Below are positions 21,950 to 31,741 of a stretch of DNA of 46,020 nt, one piece after another. A model generated the notes under the pieces. The model saw nothing but the letters and a program-made list of their open reading frames with translations, was not told the DNA's origin and did not search any database. Each line of letters opens with the position of its first letter. The first letter of the stretch is position 1. The stretch is from an uncultured Lachnospiraceae bacterium (GTDB lineage: Bacteria; Bacillota; Clostridia; Lachnospirales; Lachnospiraceae), in the NCBI GenBank assembly GCA_947245585.1, contig CAMXPV010000032.1:1-46020 (forward strand), in the 5' to 3' direction. A program made the translations under genes and the position numbers.

Positions 21950-22702
21950 CTAGATAACGTAGTCGTAATCTTTCAGCACGCGCCGCAGAAACTGAATCGT
22001 CCTCTCCTCTTTTGGTTTTGTGAATATCTGCTCCGCGCTGCCCTGCTCCACAATCACGCCGCCATCCATAAAAATCACCTTACTTGCAACCTCCTGCGCA
22101 AAGGTCATTTCGTGGGTGACGACAATCATCGTAGCCCCCTCCTTCGCCAACTTCTTCATCACCGCAAGCACCTCCCCGATCAGCTCCGGGTCAAGGGCTG
22201 AAGTTGGCTCGTCAAAAAGCAGTACGTCCGGATTAACCGCGATCGCCCTTGCAATACCGACCCTCTGCTGCTGCCCGCCGGACAGTTGAGAGGGGTAGTA
22301 ATCATACCGCTTTGAAAGCCCCACCTTATCAAGAGCAGCCTTTGCCCGCGCAAGAGCTTCCTCCTTCGGCACCTTTCTCGCCACGGCCAGTCCCTCCATC
22401 ACATTTTCCAGAGCCGTCTTATTTTGAAACAGATTATAATTCTGAAAGACAAAGGCCGTCTTTTTTCTCACCTTGGAGACAACCGCCTTGGAGGCGCTCT
22501 TTAATTCCGTATGAATCTCGTCAAAGTCCATGGTGCCGCCGTCCGCCCGCTCCAAAAAATTCAGGCAGCGCAGAAGCGTTGTCTTTCCCGAACCGCTGGG
22601 GCCGAGAATCACCACGATATCTCCTTTTTTCACTTCTATAGTAACGCCCCGGAGCACCTGATTTTCCCCGAAGGCTTTCTGCACATTTTTTACCTGTAAC
22701 AT
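21950..22702 (-). CDS. Polar amino-acid ABC transporter ATP-binding protein
   Basis: This is a 250-residue ATPase of the GlnQ/TcyC type with Walker [11 protein letters not shown]-loop VFQNYNLF, signature [14 protein letters not shown], Walker [15 protein letters not shown] and the H-loop VTHEM. It energises uptake through the two permeases upstream. The start is MLQVKNV, with GGAG 6 nt before it; the open frame further upstream has no good site. It is the last gene of the operon that begins with the UroD-like gene. The substrate is not given by the sequence; cystine or another sulfur amino acid is an inference from the operon. Confidence 0.92.
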
Positions 22703-22749: not shown

Positions 22750-23463
22750 TCAGGAAACGGCCGGCTTCTTGTAAGCCGCCGCTCCGCGCTCCGTCAGATG
22801 AAATACGCCCTGCACCCCGCTGCACAGGAAAATATAAACCACAAAGATGACCAGATAAGCCTCCAGATAATTGTAGCCGAAGGACGCGTCGATCTTGGCG
22901 ATTGCCGTGATATCCTTCACCGTCATCATAAAGGCAAGGGAGGTGCTCTTCAAAAGGCTGACTGTGGTGTTACAGATATTCGGAAGCGCCGACACAAGCG
23001 CCTGCGGAATGATAATCCTGACATACGCCTGCGGCGCGGACATGCCGATCGAAAGCGCCGCCTCCAACTGGCCTTTGTTTACGGTGGAAAGCGCCGAACG
23101 GAACACTTCCGAGAGCACCGCCGTGGTGTTCAATATAAATACCACATAGGCGTAGAAAATCGGATCGATCGTAAATATATTGAAGGATAATCCCAACACC
23201 CCTTTGATCAGATAATTGAGCACGGTGGGCAGAAGGCTGTACAGGAAAAGGATTTGCAGTACCACCGGCGTTCCGCGGATCACCGATACATAGGCCGCAA
23301 TGATCCTCCTCCCAATCTTACCCTCCCCCGATTTTGATACCGCCATCAGGAATCCAAGCGGTGCGGCGCATAAAAGTGTTACCACCACGATATTGAGTGT
23401 CACGGGTATGCCCTGTAACACATGCAAAAAAGTTGTCAGCATAAACTGTGTATCTAACTGCAT
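22750..23463 (-). CDS. Polar amino-acid ABC transporter permease
   Basis: This is a 237-residue HisM/TcyB-type permease with about five membrane segments and the ATPase-contact loop ([17 protein letters not shown], about 155-172). The ATG at 23463 has GAAAGGAGG about 9 nt upstream and lies a few bases inside the end of the preceding permease gene, so the two are translated together. With the other permease it forms the membrane channel of a PAAT-family importer. Confidence 0.92.
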
Positions 23464-24170
23464 TTTCCCGCGCCTCCTTTCTCCTGTTTCACCGGCGACA
23501 AACGCCGTTCCCATATTCCCGCGCCCTTTTCCACCAGAATGGTCAGCCCCCAGTACAGAAGGAACAGGGCCAGATAAATTTCCAAACTGTAAGAACCGTG
23601 ATTCTGCCCGATCATCAGCTGTCCCTTTCCCATAATGTCAATCAGTCCTATGGTATAGGCTAACGACCCTTCTTTCATGAGATTTACTAAGGCGTTGGTG
23701 AAGTTTGGAATCGCCACTCTGACGCACTGGGGCAGGACAATCCGATAAAAGGCCTGAAATTCCGTCAATCCAATGCTGACCGCCGCCTCCCTCTGCCCTC
23801 TGTCCACCGCCTCGTAGGCGGAGCGGAAAACCTCCGCCATGGAAGCGGCAAACAAGAGGGAAAATGTAGTGATTACAAAAAATCCTTTGCCCGCGTCATT
23901 GATATTGATGCCAAACACATTTAAAAACTCCGGCAGTCCGTAATAAATCAAAAATAATAAAACGATGGAGGGCACACAGCGTATCACATAAATATACAAA
24001 TTTGCGAAAACCCGTCCCACTCTGCCCCTCCTGATTCTGCCCGCCGCAAGGAAGATTCCAAGCAGGCTGCCGAAAAATACCGTACCGATCACAATCGCGG
24101 CAGTCACGGGCAGATAAAGAATTAACTGGGGTAATGCCTCAAAAATATATTGTGGATGAAATGGCCGCAT
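23454..24170 (-). CDS. Polar amino-acid ABC transporter permease
   Basis: This is a 238-residue permease, a paralogue of the next gene, with the contact loop GQREAAVSIGLTEFQAF and the N-terminal membrane segment typical of the HisQ/HisM family. It ends 10 nt inside the following gene. GAGAGGA lies about 6 nt before the ATG. Two different permeases imply a heterodimeric channel. Confidence 0.92.
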   Translation of the reverse strand: MRPFHPQYIFEALPQLILYLPVTAAIVIGTVFFGSLLGIFLAAGRIRRGRVGRVFANLYIYVIRCVPSIVLLFLIYYGLPEFLNVFGININDAGKGFFVITTFSLLFAASMAEVFRSAYEAVDRGQREAAVSIGLTEFQAFYRIVLPQCVRVAIPNFTNALVNLMKEGSLAYTIGLIDIMGKGQLMIGQNHGSYSLEIYLALFLLYWGLTILVEKGAGIWERRLSPVKQEKGGAGKCS

Positions 24171-24204: not shown

Positions 24205-25179
24205 TTACAAGTCGTCGCCGATCTGATATCCCTCCGGTACATAATCAAACAGACTATACCCAAAGTATTCCTGCTGCAATTTTTCCAATGTGCCGTCCGC
24301 CTGAAGCTTCTCCCAAGCCTCGTCGTAAGCGTCTGCAAGCGCCTGATTGCCACTAGCAAACAGCGGCCATGTGGGAATGCCCTCGTAGTCGATATAAGTC
24401 AATTTATCCACAAAATCATGGTACTCTCCGTCTTCTGCCAGTACGTTTGCGTCAAAGGAAGTCTTGATATTGATATAGGCATCATATCTGCCCTCTAGCA
24501 CCCACTGATAAGCGTCCGCCGCCTCAAACTGATCGCCCGCGACCAGATTGATGGGCTGCTCCGGATGTTTTTTATTATAATTGTCCACAATCGTATACTG
24601 CGCGTTCTGTGCGCCGATGGGAACCAGATTGCCGCTGTATGCCGCAAAGGACTCCAAATCCTTGATCTGATCCGCATCCTCGCTGCGAATGGCAATGCCG
24701 ATTATGCTCGTACCGATATAGTGCTTCGGGAAAACAAACTTTTCAGACCGCTCCTTCGTCCACCAGACACCCTTTGTGCCCACATCATATTTACCGGATT
24801 CTATTCCGATCAGCAAATCGTCGTCCGTTGTGCCCACATACTCAAACTCGTACTGGGGAAGCAGTTCGTCCACCGCCTTTAACACCGCCACCTCGTAGCC
24901 GTCGGACTCGCCGTTCTCATTAATGAAGTCATAAGGCTTGTAAGCCTGCGTATGCGCCACCGTAATTTTGGTAACCCCGTCCGCCTGTTGTGCGCCCTCG
25001 TCCCCGGACGCCTGCTGCGCCGCCTCATTGTTCTTTGCCTGCGCCTGAATGGCCGAGCCGCCTGCGGAATCAGCACTCCCGCAAGCCGTGGCGCCGATTC
25101 CCAACGCCGCGATCACGCTTACCGCCGCAATTTTTCTCCCTGCTTTTACTGCGCTCACTGTTGTAATCTTCTTTTTCAT
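24205..25179 (-). CDS. Amino-acid-binding lipoprotein of the ABC transporter
   Basis: This 324-residue family 3 solute-binding protein has a signal peptide with lipobox ATAC (about residue 33), an Ala/Gln/Asn-rich linker, and a periplasmic-binding fold starting with ITVAHTQAYKPYDF and containing the family motif DVGTKGVWWTKERSEKFVFP. It captures the substrate outside the membrane for the two permeases downstream. It directly follows the UroD-like gene. The ligand is unknown; the fold fits cystine, arginine and glutamine binders alike. Confidence 0.92.
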   Translation of the reverse strand: MKKKITTVSAVKAGRKIAAVSVIAALGIGATACGSADSAGGSAIQAQAKNNEAAQQASGDEGAQQADGVTKITVAHTQAYKPYDFINENGESDGYEVAVLKAVDELLPQYEFEYVGTTDDDLLIGIESGKYDVGTKGVWWTKERSEKFVFPKHYIGTSIIGIAIRSEDADQIKDLESFAAYSGNLVPIGAQNAQYTIVDNYNKKHPEQPINLVAGDQFEAADAYQWVLEGRYDAYINIKTSFDANVLAEDGEYHDFVDKLTYIDYEGIPTWPLFASGNQALADAYDEAWEKLQADGTLEKLQQEYFGYSLFDYVPEGYQIGDDL

Positions 25180-25249: not shown

Positions 25250-26242
25250 TTACTTTCCATAAGTTTCGGCTGCTTTCCGCACCCATTCCAGTCTCTCAAG
25301 GGGCGTGTCCGAGGGAATCGTGCAGTCCGCGCCCAAAATCACGCCGGTCGTTCCCGCCTCCTCCAAAAGCCTTCTTGCCTCATTCTCCACTTCCTCTTTG
25401 CTTCCCCTGTAGAGAACCCCGTTTTTCGTATTGTCGAAGCCGCCGATCACAGCACGGCCGCCGAACAGCTTTTTCCCCTCGTTCAAGGAAACCCGCTCTA
25501 CAACCACCGCCCAATTGATGACCTTCACATCATAATCCTTATAGACCGAAAGATCATTTCTGGCCCCCTCGTAGCCGCAGATATGTAAAATGTTGTAATC
25601 GCTGACCGCATTGGCCACGTTCAGAACACCCTGCTCGCTCGGCGTAATATACTTGTGATAGAGCTCCTTGCTCACCGCCTTGTCCTGTATGTTCTTCGTG
25701 CTCAGGTAAATACCGTCCGCTTTGCCCTCCGTGATTACCTTGAAGGCCAGTCTCGCCAGATCCTGCTTGATTACGTTCAACACATAGGCCAGCTTCTCAG
25801 GCTCGTTTTTGATCAGCTCCGCAAGCGTCAAACCGCTGCCCGATTCCTCCAGTACAAATCCCAAAACCGTCGCCGGTGCAAAGATGTTATAGAAGGTTGT
25901 CACCTCATTCCCGAAACGGTCTGTCAATTCTTTTACCAAGGCGGTCTGCGCGTCAACCCATTCATCCACCAGACCACTCTTCGCCTTTAGCAGATCCTCC
26001 GCTTTTTCCACCTTCTCAAGCGTAGGGTTGGGATAACGGAAATAGCCGTCGCTCATCAGCTTTACAAAATCCGGTTTAAAAGAATCGTAGAATTGGAAAT
26101 GTCCCTCCACATTCTTCCGGATGATCTCCGGTTTTTCGGTAAACAAATCGTCCGGCGCAAAATGGAACCAGAAGCCCACCGGAACCCTCTCAGTTTTCTT
26201 GTTGTCAAACGCATCCAATACCAGTTGTCTCTTATCGCTCAT
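25250..26242 (-). CDS. Uroporphyrinogen decarboxylase-family protein with zinc/thiol methyltransferase signature
   Basis: This 330-residue TIM-barrel protein of the UroD superfamily is unlikely to be haem HemE. It keeps HICG (His220, Cys222) and a late Cys307 in GADCTIP, the H-x-C...C zinc set of MtaA/MtbA/CmuA-like methyltransferases, which move methyl groups to thiols, often from a corrinoid. No corrinoid protein or haem gene is adjacent. Instead it leads an amino-acid transporter operon, so it probably acts on the imported compound, plausibly a sulfur or methylated amino acid. GAGGAG lies 7-8 nt before the ATG. The family is sure; the reaction is inference. Confidence 0.85.
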   Translation of the reverse strand: MSDKRQLVLDAFDNKKTERVPVGFWFHFAPDDLFTEKPEIIRKNVEGHFQFYDSFKPDFVKLMSDGYFRYPNPTLEKVEKAEDLLKAKSGLVDEWVDAQTALVKELTDRFGNEVTTFYNIFAPATVLGFVLEESGSGLTLAELIKNEPEKLAYVLNVIKQDLARLAFKVITEGKADGIYLSTKNIQDKAVSKELYHKYITPSEQGVLNVANAVSDYNILHICGYEGARNDLSVYKDYDVKVINWAVVVERVSLNEGKKLFGGRAVIGGFDNTKNGVLYRGSKEEVENEARRLLEEAGTTGVILGADCTIPSDTPLERLEWVRKAAETYGK

Positions 26243-26476
26243 TATTTTCTCCTCTTTTTTCTTTAAACTTTCTGCTTATAAGCAGATTCGAGATGCTGCG
26301 CATCTCTCATTCGCGTTGCTCGCCGTAAGTCTCCCGAAGCATACATTCATGCAAGCATGATGTCTGCTTCGTCAGCCTTCCTTCTCTGCTTATGCGCGCA
26401 AAAAAACAGGCCCGCAAGCCTGTCGCCACAATCTGTTTTCCATTCCACCCTATATGCATGGCATCGTGAAAATTTC
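26243..26476 (-). promoter_or_regulatory. Structured leader between the small Cys-rich gene and the UroD-like gene
   Basis: These 234 nt contain, in transcript order, the terminator at 26399-26423, a long imperfect hairpin (26335-26371; 16 of 17-18 positions pair around an AA turn), a 7-bp hairpin (26290-26306) and a 16-nt perfect palindrome TCTGCTTATAAGCAGA (26271-26286). Then come GAGGAG and the UroD-like ATG. The density of hairpins suggests RNA-level control of the transporter operon or an inserted intergenic repeat. Short open frames crossing this region look like chance. Confidence 0.6.
26399..26423 (-). terminator. Terminator / candidate attenuator after the Cys-rich small gene
   Basis: On the minus strand ACAGGC and GCCTGT form a stem around a short GC-rich loop (TTGCGG), followed directly by seven T residues. 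It is a textbook intrinsic terminator, 54 nt past the stop codon of the 47-codon gene and about 155 nt before the UroD-like start. Confidence 0.85.
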
Positions 26477-26620
26477 CTAAGATCGTCTGCACGTTTCAAG
26501 CTTCGCTTCTTGTTCTTTATATAATTGCGCATCGGCCGCGCATGACATACAACAGCAGCACATACACATACCCCTGCCCATACACATCATTGTTGCCACC
26601 ATCGTTCCTGTCTGTCTCAT
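26477..26620 (-). CDS. 47-residue Cys/Met-rich small protein or leader peptide
   Basis: This short gene has 47 codons from an ATG with GGGAG about 8 nt upstream to TAG. It contains eight Cys and seven internal Met. The core is CMGRGMCMCCCCMSC (residues 13-27), with four consecutive Cys codons (TGC TGC TGT TGT), followed by a charged helical tail with one more Cys (44). A TTGACA-17-TAATAT promoter precedes it and a strong terminator follows it, before an operon for an amino-acid importer and a zinc/thiol methyltransferase-like protein. The likeliest reading is a leader peptide whose translation senses Cys (or Met) charging. The alternative is a free thiol-rich peptide. It does not match SCIFF. 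This is inference from pattern. Confidence 0.6.
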   Translation of the reverse strand: MRQTGTMVATMMCMGRGMCMCCCCMSCAADAQLYKEQEAKLETCRRS

Positions 26621-26648
26621 CTCTTTTCTCCCTTCTTTACTGCATTTT

Positions 26649-26688
26649 CTTATTTCATATTATTCCTAGCGGATAAATATGAAATAAG
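26649..26688 (-). promoter_or_regulatory. Perfect 13-bp inverted repeat at the predicted mRNA start
   Basis: Arms CTTATTTCATATT and AATATGAAATAAG flank a 14-nt spacer. The repeat begins about 9 nt after the -10 box of the small Cys-rich gene, so it can be an operator at the start site or a stabilising 5' hairpin in the RNA. Confidence 0.65.
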
Positions 26689-26697
26689 CTTACATGA

Positions 26698-26726
26698 ATA
26701 TTACCACGCTGTTTTTCTTTTGTCAA
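26698..26726 (-). promoter_or_regulatory. Strong sigma-70-like promoter of the Cys-rich gene and transporter operon
   Basis: Minus-strand TTGACA (complement of 26721-26726) is followed after exactly 17 nt by TAATAT (complement of 26698-26703). The predicted start lies about 70-75 nt before the small gene, and no other good promoter is seen before the UroD-like gene. Confidence 0.75.
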
Positions 26727-27006: not shown

Positions 27007-27435
27007 ATGAGAGAAAAAACCTGTAAAAAACCACTGTGTCTTATTTACATACTGACCCTGCTTTTCTGGAGCGTAATCTCTGGATCGGTTTCCGCTTCCG
27101 AAATTACCGGGGTGGTTTGCGGTGAATCTGATTGTTATGTAAACCACGTTTCGCCTACCACCCTCATCTCATTGGACAAACGTCTTCCCCTCCGGGAAAA
27201 TCTGTCCGCACGTGGATCCGAAGGCCTGGAAACTTTGTCCGCCACCGGAAGCCAACGTATGAAACCTTTGTCTCGCTCTGTCAGACATACTGCCGCGAAT
27301 CTCATTCCCTGTCACTCTTACGATAATTTATACGCCATCGGCAGACAATTTCACCAGCATCAAATAGCGATCCACAGCCTTTGCGGCATCATTATAACAA
27401 ATTACATTCATCATCAGGATGGCCAAAAATCCTGA
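27007..27435 (+). CDS. Hypothetical secreted protein
   Basis: This is a 142-residue frame starting with a typical signal peptide (basic MREKTCKK, hydrophobic core, ASE-type cleavage near residue 31). The mature part has four Cys and a His/Gln-rich tail, and resembles no family I know. Support comes from its surroundings: a good promoter about 65 nt upstream and an intrinsic terminator overlapping its stop codon. Against it, there is no clear ribosome site, and the composition of the tail is unusual. It could be a decayed gene or a small RNA unit in which the reading frame is by chance. Confidence 0.4.
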   Translation: MREKTCKKPLCLIYILTLLFWSVISGSVSASEITGVVCGESDCYVNHVSPTTLISLDKRLPLRENLSARGSEGLETLSATGSQRMKPLSRSVRHTAANLIPCHSYDNLYAIGRQFHQHQIAIHSLCGIIITNYIHHQDGQKS

Positions 27436-28841: not shown

Positions 28842-29297
28842 TTAATTCATTTTTCTGCTTTCACCGTAGAGTCCCATATTTTTTCTTGTAATATTATCAT
28901 ACCACTCATCCCAAATATCGTCTTCATCAAACAGCGCATTGATAATATAAGAACGGGTCGGCGTTTCACTCACCTCAAGCATAATTAAAATCCATCCCAG
29001 TTTAATAATATTGTCCTGAATGAGTCTGAAAAAATATTTCGCGGCGTTCTCCACCGTAGGCACCGTCTTGTCAAAAGGCGGACAGCTGTTTAAAAGTTTG
29101 TCCTGGTACTGCTCCATGATTTCATCCATCTTCCGCTCAATATTGGCAAACGGTGTCATTTCGCTCTGTGTTGAAATCACGCTGATAATGATTTCCCACG
29201 TATGCGGATGCACCTCTCCGGGTTTATCGTCCACAATAATATAATGGTTCATATTCAGGTAAAATTTAAATTTATATTGTCTGTACGCGTTTTCCAT
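28842..29297 (-). CDS. PTPS/QueD-like protein of the exosortase G locus (second copy)
   Basis: This 151-residue protein has the 6-pyruvoyl-tetrahydropterin synthase fold. The zinc ligands seem to be kept: His18 in MNH, and His30 and His32 in HPH. The catalytic Cys that QueD enzymes carry shortly before the HxH motif is absent. Family motifs PPFDKTVPTVEN and EVSETPTRSY are present. It overlaps the glycosyltransferase gene by 26 nt and has AGAGGAGAG upstream. Proteins of this subfamily are known only from XrtG loci, and their reaction is unknown. It is not expected to make queuosine precursors. Confidence 0.82.
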   Translation of the reverse strand: MENAYRQYKFKFYLNMNHYIIVDDKPGEVHPHTWEIIISVISTQSEMTPFANIERKMDEIMEQYQDKLLNSCPPFDKTVPTVENAAKYFFRLIQDNIIKLGWILIMLEVSETPTRSYIINALFDEDDIWDEWYDNITRKNMGLYGESRKMN

Positions 29298-30687
29298 GAG
29301 CTCTCCTCTGTTTTGACGGTTTTAAAGGTTTTTCCAATATTTTGAGCAGCAGCGTCCGTATCCCAAATAGAAAGAAAAAATCATGCCGCACCGTCTCGTT
29401 TATCATCTTACGCTCTTCCGTAAAGGTCAGTGTCTTCCAACTGCTCTTGCGCTTAATGGAATTGATAATTCCCGCAAACCTGACAAAGAAGGCAAAAAGA
29501 TTATAGATCGGCAGTGCGAACAGATAGAGCAGCTTTCTTGCATAATACCGGCGCAGCGAAGAATATCCTTTCAAAAACGAAATGATATTCAAATAGTATA
29601 AAAAGGAACTGAACACATAAAGCACATAGATCAGCACGCAGGCGATCACGACATTGTGGAAATTATAATTCATGCAGCCGAGTGCAATCAAAACAAAATA
29701 CCAGATCATACGCGGAAAAGCAAATGTATGGTCTGTCATCAGCAGACGAATGACAAAATCATTAAAATATCCCGTGATTGGTCTGTGCAGCTTATTTTTC
29801 AGGAACATATGGGAGACTTCCAGTTCGCCAATCTGCCATCTCTGCCGCTGCGTGTAGAACTTATTGACGCTTTCAATCGGATCCACCATGAAAATGGCAT
29901 CATTGCACAGGTGCACCTTTTTCTTCAAAATCGCACGAATCTGGAACGTCAGGTGCGTATCTTCGCAGATTGTGTTCGTGTTATACAAGAACGTTTTCAT
30001 CAATACCGATTTTCGGAAAGAAGAAAAAGCTCCCGACAACGTGTAAATACTGTTAAACTGCGATTCAAAGTTTCGGCCTGCCAAAAACGCCTGCGCATAC
30101 TCCATAAATTCCAGTTTCCGAAACTGCTTTAGGAAAAAGCCCTTCGTCTCCTCAATCAGGGCAGGCTCAATCAGGATTACGCCCGTCATACAGTCGATAT
30201 CGGAATAGGTCTCAAACTGCCTGACAATATTCATCAGCGCATGCTCGTCCAAAACACCGTCACTGTCGATATTGATCACGTATTTACCGTTGCTGTTAAA
30301 AATGGCTTTGTTCAGCGCCTTCGACTTTCCCTGTTTAGAGTGCATCCACCACATGGCAAGCTCCGGAAAAGCGATCTGCGCCTTCTGGAAAATTTCAAAA
30401 CTGTCATCTTTTGATCCGTTATCCACAAGCATAATTTCAATCAAATGATTCGGATACGTGGAAAGATGAACAGATTCTATACAGCGGTATAACGTCTGTC
30501 CGGAATTATAAACCGGTATCATCAAAGTGATATTTGGCAGATAATCCAACTTGATATCCTTGGCAATCCTGACACGCTTAAACAATAAAATAAAGAAGTT
30601 GCCCACCGCCGGAATAATCTCTATGATAAGGGGAATGATAATCCACGCCGCCCAGAAAAAAATTTCATTCGCTAACCTCGTTATCAT
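29272..30687 (-). CDS. Exosortase G-associated processive family 2 glycosyltransferase
   Basis: This 471-residue membrane enzyme has one N-terminal TM segment, a GT-A domain with LVDNGS, NIDSDG and CEDTHLT acidic motifs, and the QRQRW signature (about residue 278), then several C-terminal TM segments. D,D,D,QxxRW is the set of processive polymer synthases such as cellulose and hyaluronan synthase. It probably makes a surface polysaccharide and pushes it across the membrane. The start is the ATG with GGAGAG 7 nt upstream; it overlaps xrtG by 23 nt. Overlaps with both neighbours show obligatory co-expression. Confidence 0.9.
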   Translation of the reverse strand: MITRLANEIFFWAAWIIIPLIIEIIPAVGNFFILLFKRVRIAKDIKLDYLPNITLMIPVYNSGQTLYRCIESVHLSTYPNHLIEIMLVDNGSKDDSFEIFQKAQIAFPELAMWWMHSKQGKSKALNKAIFNSNGKYVINIDSDGVLDEHALMNIVRQFETYSDIDCMTGVILIEPALIEETKGFFLKQFRKLEFMEYAQAFLAGRNFESQFNSIYTLSGAFSSFRKSVLMKTFLYNTNTICEDTHLTFQIRAILKKKVHLCNDAIFMVDPIESVNKFYTQRQRWQIGELEVSHMFLKNKLHRPITGYFNDFVIRLLMTDHTFAFPRMIWYFVLIALGCMNYNFHNVVIACVLIYVLYVFSSFLYYLNIISFLKGYSSLRRYYARKLLYLFALPIYNLFAFFVRFAGIINSIKRKSSWKTLTFTEERKMINETVRHDFFFLFGIRTLLLKILEKPLKPSKQRRAHGKRVQTI

Positions 30688-31273
30688 ATCCAAACTCTCC
30701 TACTCGTTGTTTACGTATCTGTGCCCTTGTGAACACATAAAAATACAATATAATGGACAGCGCATAGAAAATCAATCTTCCCACAATCGTATGCGCAACG
30801 TAATAAGATTCATTGCCAAACCAGTTAATAATCAGACATATGGAAAAAAGCCTGATAATATTTGCCGCCATAATCCACAAAATGCCCACCAACGACAATA
30901 TCAGTTTTTCCTTCTTCGAATACACGGCAAAAAACCATACCAGAGAGATAAACACCAAAATCTCAATCACACCGCCACACTCAAAATCCACATAGAGGGA
31001 AATGGGCCCGTCCGCATTTTCCACAAAAAGAATCGAATGCGACGTATATGCCTTAAAGATCCCCAAAGCATTTCCAAGAAGTCCCGTCAAAAAGCAGGTC
31101 AGCGTCGTTAATATTTTTGTCAGAACATTCCTCAACAGGAAAAAAGAAAACAGAAATGTTCCGATACTGCCGATCAGAAAATAGAAAAACTCCAGTTTCC
31201 TTCTTTTAAAAACTGTCAGAATATAAATCCAGACAACAATCAGTAAAATATATAAGACTGCAAATTTAAGCAT
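30665..31273 (-). CDS. xrtG: Exosortase family protein XrtG
   Basis: This 202-residue integral membrane protein has about six to seven hydrophobic segments. The exosortase triad is visible: Cys99 in FECGG, Arg141 in ANIIRL and His161 in VAHTIVGR. Exosortases cut C-terminal sorting tails and are thought to pass the substrate to a new linkage. XrtG is the Gram-positive form whose substrate and product are not proven. It directly follows the first PTPS-like gene (no gap) and overlaps the glycosyltransferase, with GGGGGG upstream. The candidate substrate is the secreted protein at 31738. Confidence 0.88.
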   Translation of the reverse strand: MLKFAVLYILLIVVWIYILTVFKRRKLEFFYFLIGSIGTFLFSFFLLRNVLTKILTTLTCFLTGLLGNALGIFKAYTSHSILFVENADGPISLYVDFECGGVIEILVFISLVWFFAVYSKKEKLILSLVGILWIMAANIIRLFSICLIINWFGNESYYVAHTIVGRLIFYALSIILYFYVFTRAQIRKQRVGEFGYDNEVSE

Positions 31274-31741
31274 CTATTCCATTCCCCCCTGCTGCTCTGC
31301 ATATCTTTTGTGAACTCTCTCACAGTATTCCTCTACGGATTTTTCCAAAGCCAGACTGTATACATTTCCAAACATCGGCCTCTCTCCGACACAGTATGAT
31401 GAAATCGGACTGTCCCCCATTTCCAAAAGGAGAAGCTTCATCCCGTTTCTTTTAAAAATCGGTTTCAGATCCCAGTAAAATGCTTCGCCCATGTTCTCCA
31501 AAGTCGGCACGGTTTCCGTAAACGGAGACAGCTCATTTAAGCGGATTCCCCGATATCGATCAAAATAGCGCTTTAAAATGTTCTCCGTGTTCAGGAAAAT
31601 AGGATGGTCTTCCTGCTCTTCTATGACATAGATGCCCACACAAAATGTGTGGGCATGCATCTTTCTCGGATCATCTGGCGTCAAATTGTGCATCGCATTA
31701 AAAGTTATATGGTATAAATACGCTTCATGCCTCTCGCTCAT
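31274..31741 (-). CDS. PTPS/QueD-like protein of the exosortase G locus (first copy)
   Basis: This 155-residue protein is a diverged paralogue of the one at 28842. The His18, His29 and His31 positions match the zinc ligands, and LSPFTETVPTLEN and LEMGDSPISSY match the family pattern. The Cys nucleophile of true QueD is again absent (the loop reads TPDDPRKMHAH). It overlaps the end of the secreted-protein gene by 4 nt (ATGA) and abuts xrtG. Two copies in one operon may act as a heteromer or on two related substrates. Confidence 0.82.
   Translation of the reverse strand: MSERHEAYLYHITFNAMHNLTPDDPRKMHAHTFCVGIYVIEEQEDHPIFLNTENILKRYFDRYRGIRLNELSPFTETVPTLENMGEAFYWDLKPIFKRNGMKLLLLEMGDSPISSYCVGERPMFGNVYSLALEKSVEEYCERVHKRYAEQQGGME

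What the first reader, a model, noticed from the sequence alone, without database searches (positions are those of the whole stretch)
26243..26726. Cys-codon leader peptide and terminator ahead of an amino-acid importer: candidate cysteine attenuation system
Seen: a TTGACA-17-TAATAT promoter, a 47-codon gene with good ribosome site and four consecutive Cys codons inside CMGRGMCMCCCCMSC, then an intrinsic terminator with a seven-T tail, then an operon for a UroD-fold protein with HxC...C and a polar amino-acid ABC importer. Known: Cys-rich upstream peptides control sulfur genes by ribosome attenuation in actinobacteria (general knowledge), and leader peptides rich in the regulated amino acid are classic. 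Inference: slow translation at Cys (or Met) codons prevents termination and turns on sulfur amino-acid uptake. Caveats: the Cys run is over 100 nt from the terminator, and I could not find a convincing antiterminator pairing by eye.
Basis: partly seen in the sequence, partly recalled or inferred. Interest (0 to 1): 0.85.

Follow-up and report, generated by a model that had tools for sequence, protein, structure and literature searches.

The report
Cysteine-codon attenuator before amino-acid importer
Ahead of genes for an amino-acid importer and a methyltransferase-like enzyme, a Lachnospiraceae bacterium and five relatives carry a tiny gene with a run of cysteine codons, an RNA stop signal, and a matching RNA stretch that can pair with half of that stop signal; together they likely form a switch predicted to turn the importer on when cysteine runs short.

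Summary
Five other genomes keep the same order. Of 18 distinct leader peptides 18 contain CCC and 16 contain MSC. It pairs in 41 of 42 cells over six genomes, is the best of 175 alignment positions (97.6%; next 71.4%), changes together with the terminator, occurs in two reading frames, and lies 45-48 nt after the Cys run. Two relatives show decay: one lacks the antiterminator; one has leader codons 1-6 fused in frame to the UroD-like gene. An operator-like element after the -10 box also precedes a trans-sulfuration gene in one relative. Most likely: ribosome-mediated transcription attenuation responding to Cys-tRNA. Sensing, and how a finished ribosome disables the antiterminator, are inferred. 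Known mechanism, new leader family; my searches found no earlier report.

The parts
26698..26726 (-). Promoter TTGACA-17-TAATAT, TG before the second hexamer
   Evidence: same place and 17-nt spacing in 8 of 8 aligned loci
26650..26687 (-). Operator-like inverted repeat just after the -10 box (core TCATAY-N8-TAKGRAWA)
   Evidence: Core exact in 7 of 8 loci, L061 departs in the last base; 14-15 nt after the -10 box in all 8; binding protein inferred only
26628..26634 (-). Shine-Dalgarno-like AAGGGAG of the leader ORF
   Evidence: Sequence
26477..26620 (-). Leader peptide ORF, 47 codons, Cys- and Met-rich
26540..26566 (-). Conserved CMCCCCMSC stretch; four consecutive Cys codons at 26560-26549
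   Evidence: Invariant columns C, M, C, C, C, M, S, C in six leaders; for coordinates
26497..26503 (-). Antiterminator strand AAGCUUG (consensus RAGYYUG)
   Evidence: 41 of 42 cells pair with the terminator 5' arm in six genomes; best of 175 positions
26400..26422 (-). Intrinsic terminator CAGGCUUGCGGGCCUG plus U7; its 5' arm 26422-26416 is shared with the antiterminator
25250..26242 (-). UroD-fold protein, 330 aa, HxC...C (inferred zinc-thiolate methyltransferase)
   Evidence: PF01208 2.2e-21; invariant H220, C222, C307; model and fold matches
24205..25179 (-). Family-3 solute-binding lipoprotein of the importer
   Evidence: PF00497 1.4e-23
23454..24170 (-). Importer permease 1
   Evidence: PF00528; best NCBIfam model is the cystine permease, below its cut-off
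22750..23514 (-). Importer permease 2
   Evidence: PF00528; HisM and cystine permease models nearly tied, both below cut-off
21950..22702 (-). Importer ATPase (start at 22702 inferred from MLQVKN; listed ORF begins at 22825)
   Evidence: Best NCBIfam model TcyN, below its cut-off

Best explanation
This 5' leader is likely a ribosome-mediated transcription attenuator in which slow decoding of a run of cysteine codons in a 47-codon leader peptide would let an antiterminator form and so would switch on an operon for a UroD-like protein and a PAAT-type importer. Shown: promoter, leader ORF, Cys run, terminator and downstream operon occur together in six genomes; RAGYYUG near the 3' end of the leader ORF is complementary to the terminator's 5' arm, the two change together, and RAGYYUG starts 45-48 nt after the Cys run in all six. 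Inferred: when Cys-tRNA is scarce the ribosome stalls on the Cys run, RAGYYUG stays free and pairs with the terminator's 5' arm (on); when cysteine is plentiful the ribosome runs to the end of the ORF and disturbs the antiterminator, so that the terminator forms (off). Also inferred: the operator-like element after the -10 box, which recurs at a trans-sulfuration gene in a relative, adds control of initiation.
For: Order promoter / Cys leader / terminator / UroD-like gene in own, G462, G370, G454, L059, L061. CCC in 18 of 18 and MSC in 16 of 18 distinct leader peptides; Cys run length varies (CCC, CCCC, CMCMCCC). Antiterminator: 41 of 42 cells paired, slid controls 4.9-54.8%; first of 175 alignment positions, 97.6% against 71.4% for the second; the only 7-of-7 complement in 5 of 6 leaders. 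G to A in the arm of L059 and L061 goes with C to U in the terminator's 3' arm and U in RAGYYUG. Motif in frame 0 in five genomes and frame 2 in G370, so it is kept as RNA. Gap Cys run to RAGYYUG 45-48 nt. Folding with a ribosome held on the Cys run, before the terminator 3' arm exists: P(antiterminator) 0.97, 0.35, 0.98, 0.98, 1.00, 0.70. Natural losses in G456 and G429, with promoter kept. Sulfur context. No T-box or other riboswitch in Rfam.
Against: No experiment. With the whole terminator made and the ribosome on the Cys run, the antiterminator wins at equilibrium in own, G370 and L059, but the terminator wins in G462, G454 and L061. G462 has an A-C mismatch in the helix. 39 of 500 letter shuffles reach the observed pairing, and single-leader shuffles reach the observed run in 103, 1325, 216, 16, 13, 111 of 2000; the six genomes are related. 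RAGYYUG starts 9-34 nt before the stop, so in most a ribosome at the stop would not cover it; with only the stop footprint masked P(terminator) is 0.01, 0.00, 0.72, 0.43, 0.97, 0.64. The Cys-codon hairpin is no better than synonymous recodings. Met and Ser conservation is unexplained.
Confidence: 0.7

Rival explanations
1. Nascent-peptide sensor: the peptide CM(C)3-4xMSC itself arrests the ribosome, in response to a thiol, metal or redox signal or to methionine, and sets the same antiterminator switch; Cys-tRNA charging is not what is read.
For: Met and Ser of CMCCCxMSC are invariant in six leaders, MSC in 16 of 18, and 5-9 Met per leader; Ser codon differs in L061 (TCT against TCA), so the residue is kept rather than the base.
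Against: Cys run length varies and residues are inserted in it (CMCMCCC, CMRCCC); no known arrest motif was recognised (recall, not a search).
Confidence: 0.15
2. Control lies only in the operator at the promoter; the terminator just lowers expression by a constant factor and the Cys peptide is incidental.
For: Operator-like element in 8 of 8 loci, including G429 which has lost the leader.
Against: Six leaders keep Cys codons and the terminator-antiterminator complementarity.
Confidence: 0.08
3. The ORF encodes a small working protein (for example a metal- or thiol-binding peptide) with its own terminator, and the UroD operon is reached by leaky read-through.
For: Good ribosome site, conserved Cys-rich core.
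Against: C-terminal half diverges in sequence and reading frame while RAGYYUG is kept as RNA; G429 and protein P0021 (51 contigs) lack the core.
Confidence: 0.05

Closest known systems
uORFC-8-2 motif upstream of cysS in Rhodobacterales (PMC8632094, passages read)
   Same: Short ORF with tandem Cys codons followed by an intrinsic terminator; proposed ribosome-mediated attenuation
   Different: Alphaproteobacteria, cysS target, two Cys codons inside a stem; here Lachnospiraceae, UroD-like gene and importer, 3-4 Cys codons in CMCCCxMSC, antiterminator strand after the Cys run in the ORF
Cys leader peptides of mycobacterial cys operons (PMC1262725, passages and conclusion read; Canestrari 2020 seen only as a title in reference lists)
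   Same: Cys-codon leader ahead of sulfur genes
   Different: There the Cys runs lie near the stop and no terminator hairpin was found; here an intrinsic terminator and a covarying antiterminator are present
Classical trp/his-type attenuators (recalled)
   Same: Leader peptide with codons of the regulated amino acid; mutually exclusive antiterminator and terminator sharing one arm
   Different: No supported 1:2 hairpin; the antiterminator strand lies in the ORF 45-48 nt after the Cys run

Membership tests
Ribosome-mediated transcription attenuator | Translated short leader ORF with ribosome site upstream of the operon | tested here: met
   ORF, ribosome site and coding-level conservation in six genomes; translation itself not measured
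Ribosome-mediated transcription attenuator | Run of codons for a related amino acid | tested here: met
   CCC in 18 of 18 leaders; link of the operon to sulfur is by context
Ribosome-mediated transcription attenuator | Intrinsic terminator between leader ORF and first gene | tested here: met
Ribosome-mediated transcription attenuator | Antiterminator that excludes the terminator | tested here: met
   Shared 5' arm, covariation; one mismatch in G462
Ribosome-mediated transcription attenuator | Ribosome position decides between the two helices | tested here: inconclusive
   Folding supports the stalled state before the 3' arm is made; at equilibrium 3 of 6; release state depends on assumptions
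Ribosome-mediated transcription attenuator | Read-through rises when the amino acid is limiting | not testable with these tools
   Needs experiment
T-box, S-box or other Rfam riboswitch | Match to the family model at gathering score | tested here: not met
   Only a tRNA matches in the window
uORFC-8-2 | Upstream of cysS in Rhodobacterales with the published two-stem structure | tested here: not met
   Different gene and taxon; published structure model itself was not compared
CymR/IscR (Rrf2) regulon | Operator bound by the Rrf2 regulator | tested here: inconclusive
   One Rrf2 protein over the cut-off in each of 3 genomes; similar element at a trans-sulfuration gene in G370 and a near match in G462, none on that strand in own and G045; 16 sites against 6 for the reversed control in 7 genomes
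MtaA/CmuA/MtbA methyltransferases | Score over the NCBIfam cut-off | tested here: not met
   Best 50.7 bits against cut-off 244; same superfamily fold and HxC...C residues

The most novel reading that the evidence does not exclude
A two-layer sulfur switch in Clostridia: a Rrf2-like operator at the promoter, plus a leader whose nascent chain CM(C)3-4xMSC reads Cys and Met supply (or thiol state) on the ribosome, with the antiterminator strand written into the end of the leader ORF and cleared directly by the ribosome without a 1:2 hairpin; relatives lose the switch by decay or by in-frame fusion of the leader start to the first gene.
Probability: 0.2. Interest if true: 0.78.

Novelty: new member of a known kind. 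Interest (0 to 1): 0.58.

Why it matters
[quoted passage not shown] A peptide-coding Cys attenuator with a covarying antiterminator in Lachnospiraceae would show that this clade also uses ribosome-mediated attenuation, for sulfur uptake. It gives a handle on an uncharacterised UroD-fold protein and importer, and nature has supplied matched alleles (intact, antiterminator lost, leader fused away) that make the mechanism directly testable.

Tried and rejected
A hairpin enclosing the Cys codons (RNAalifold consensus) was considered as a trp-like pause hairpin and rejected: of 1000 synonymous recodings 449, 183, 989, 192, 452 and 664 fold as well or better (own, G462, G370, G454, L059, L061).

A helix between leader codons 2-5 (AGACAGG) and the terminator's 3' arm plus U tract appears in free folds of some leaders (own, G454), has by eye no counterpart in G370, L059 or L061, and would form too late to prevent termination: set aside.

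The 59 genome-contig stretches with the CMCCxxMSC pattern were judged from the translated ORF: 4 (L045, L059, L061, L076) read as leaders; 55 were dropped as chance or low complexity, without looking at their neighbours. L045 and L076 lie on contigs of the same length as G454:C135 and G370:C41 and are not counted as extra genomes. A stricter form of the pattern gave nothing in viral contigs. The pattern occurs in 2 of 397 family genomes although 23 of 397 have a UroD relative at E <= 1e-60. In the genus, 9 of 77 genomes have the UroD-like gene at E <= 1e-80: 4 with an intact leader (own included), 1 truncated (G456), 1 fused (G429), 1 whose contig starts inside the gene (G423), 2 diverged copies without leader (G463, G421).

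The full operator pattern with up to 3 mismatches found only the window's own site, on both strands. The shorter pattern gave 16 sites in 7 genomes, 6 for the reversed control; 6 of the 16 are the UroD sites, one more (L114) stands at a promoter, and the other nine looked like chance by eye. The first terminator pair count used columns off by one: 44.4% paired; its own slide of -1 gives 100%, and one search has the right helix. A DNA search for further leaders in the genus added none. The literature search matched 18,119 papers on loose terms, 15 listed, none relevant. A paper search for UroD-family methyltransferase with importer gave none.

Full report
OBSERVATION. On the minus strand the window shows TTGACA-17-TAATAT (26726-26698), a Shine-Dalgarno-like AAGGGAG, a 47-codon ORF (26620-26477), a terminator CAGGCTTGCGGGCCTG-T7 (26422-26400) and the UroD-like gene from 26242. 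The ORF holds 8 Cys and 8 Met in 47 residues; at the Cys frequency of 11 other window proteins (0.0091) 8 or more Cys has P = 1.1e-8. The scan lists no minus-strand promoter between terminator and gene (consensus only). Rfam at gathering scores gives only a tRNA in the window.

OPERON. UroD-like protein (PF01208, 2.2e-21), family-3 solute-binding lipoprotein, two permeases, ATPase. Best NCBIfam models for permease 1 and the ATPase are cystine ones; for the binding protein a Lys/Arg/Orn model scores first and a cystine model second; for permease 2 HisM is just ahead of cystine. All these are below their cut-offs, so the substrate is not settled. H220, C222 and C307 are invariant in 33 homologues (33 chosen of the 120 listed, with the window's own). 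The AlphaFold model (mean pLDDT 94.7) matches UroD structures, the M. mazei methyltransferase 4ay8/4ay7 and, weaker, MetE. A zinc-thiolate methyltransferase role is inferred.

CONSERVATION. The UroD protein has relatives at E <= 1e-60 in 23 of 397 family genomes; the nearest, G370, has a leader MRKAMMKMMGCQERRACMCCCGMSC... and a terminator in front. A CMCCxxMSC DNA pattern hits 2 of 397 family genomes, own and G370, and 59 stretches of genome contigs, of which 4 read as leaders; all 4 stand before the same operon (L045 and L076 are G454 and G370 again). In the genus 9 of 77 genomes have the gene at E <= 1e-80: intact leaders in own, G462, G370, G454; G456 keeps Cys codons and terminator but lacks the region between; G429 has codons MRQTGT fused in frame to MSDK of the UroD-like protein, with promoter and operator-like element kept; G423's contig begins inside the gene; G463 and G421 have diverged copies behind other genes of the operon. 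With L059 and L061 this makes six genomes with an intact leader. The fused form is also protein P0021, listed on 51 contigs. A profile search gave 12 leader peptides, one being the window's own. Of 18 distinct leader peptides (6 intact genes, 11 database peptides, G456) 18 contain CCC, 16 MSC and 16 codons compatible with the RNA motif below; many are close relatives of one another. In the six genes the conserved Cys codons change only in their third base.

ANTITERMINATOR. Near the 3' end of the ORF lies RAGYYUG (own 26503-26497), complementary to the terminator 5' arm CAGRCUY. On the six-genome alignment A2 41 of 42 cells pair; slid controls give 4.9 to 54.8%; two pairs have double changes; but 39 of 500 letter shuffles reach the same pairing. 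Over 175 usable alignment positions this one ranks first (97.6%; next 71.4%); it is the only 7-of-7 complement in 5 of 6 leaders, and G462 has 6 of 7, tied with another place. L059 and L061 have G to A in the arm, with C to U in the terminator's 3' arm and U in the antiterminator; G370 and G454 show the wobble intermediate. The motif is in frame 0 in five genomes and frame 2 in G370: it is kept as RNA. The gap from the end of the CCC run to RAGYYUG is 45, 45, 47, 45, 48, 48 nt. Single-leader shuffles reach the observed run in 103, 1325, 216, 16, 13 and 111 of 2000 (own, G462, G370, G454, L059, L061), so the case rests on the comparison, and the six are related.

MECHANISM. In folding (order own, G462, G370, G454, L059, L061): with a ribosome held on the Cys run and the terminator's 3' arm not yet made, P(antiterminator) is 0.97, 0.35, 0.98, 0.98, 1.00, 0.70. 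With the full terminator made, the antiterminator keeps 0.85, 0.00, 0.95, 0.00, 0.99, 0.00, so three of six switch to the terminator at equilibrium. Without ribosome it is 0.83, 0.49, 0.94, 0.97, 0.72, 0.31. With a ribosome at the stop and only downstream RNA folding (antiterminator excluded by construction) P(terminator) is 0.64, 0.90, 0.97, 0.98, 0.97, 0.50; with only the stop footprint masked it is 0.01, 0.00, 0.72, 0.43, 0.97, 0.64. My reading: a stall on Cys gives read-through, completion gives termination. How completion disables RAGYYUG, which starts 9 to 34 nt before the stop, is the weakest step. A pause hairpin over the Cys codons was tested and not supported.

SULFUR CONTEXT. TCATAY-N8-TAKGRAWA stands 14-15 nt after the -10 box in all 8 aligned loci, exact in 7, L061 off in the last base. 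G370 has the element at the promoter of a gene of the cystathionine gamma-synthase/lyase family. Of 9 such genes looked at, G370 has it, G462 has a near match further upstream, five others have TAGGAA sequences, own and G045 have none on that strand. In G045 such a gene (below equivalog cut-offs) and a PatB-family C-S lyase (over its cut-off) lie directly beside the UroD-importer operon. One Rrf2 protein over the cut-off exists in each of three genomes, next to an IscU-like gene in G454 (named by eye). PMC3828012 describes CymR and IscR motifs as similar (passages). I do not assign the element to CymR.

LITERATURE. Cys-codon attenuators are known: uORFC-8-2 before cysS in Rhodobacterales (PMC8632094, passages); candidate leaders without terminators in mycobacteria and others, and the remark on Firmicutes (PMC1262725, passages and conclusion); Canestrari 2020, seen only as a title in reference lists (not held). 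Searches listed no report of such a leader in Lachnospiraceae; most subscription papers are not in that library.

VERDICT. It is a new leader family of a known kind of switch; the response to cysteine is untested.

Noticed in passing
window 28842-31741 (minus strand): Exosortase XrtG cluster: XrtG (TIGR03110), its glycosyltransferase (TIGR03111) and two 6-pyruvoyl-tetrahydropterin-synthase-related proteins (TIGR03112), all over their cut-offs.
   Followed up: partly
window 26271-26376: A 106-bp repeat lies between terminator and UroD-like gene; 8 matches in the own genome, itself included and two of them short; by eye not present in the relatives' gaps. A later insertion, perhaps changing the RNA.
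   Followed up: partly
G429 (L095, L102) and protein P0021: Natural in-frame fusion of leader codons MRQTGT to the UroD-like start, removing Cys run and terminator but keeping promoter and operator-like element.
   Followed up: partly
window 26573-26567 and homologous places in relatives: GGGUAUG just before the Cys run also complements the terminator 5' arm in 6 of 7 pairs in own, G370, G454, L059 and G456; a stalled ribosome would cover it. Meaning unknown.
   Followed up: no
window 27007-27435 (plus strand): 142-aa ORF with a signal-like N-terminus and no NCBIfam match at 1e-10; a relative lies near the operon in G429 (L102:1326-1754).
   Followed up: no
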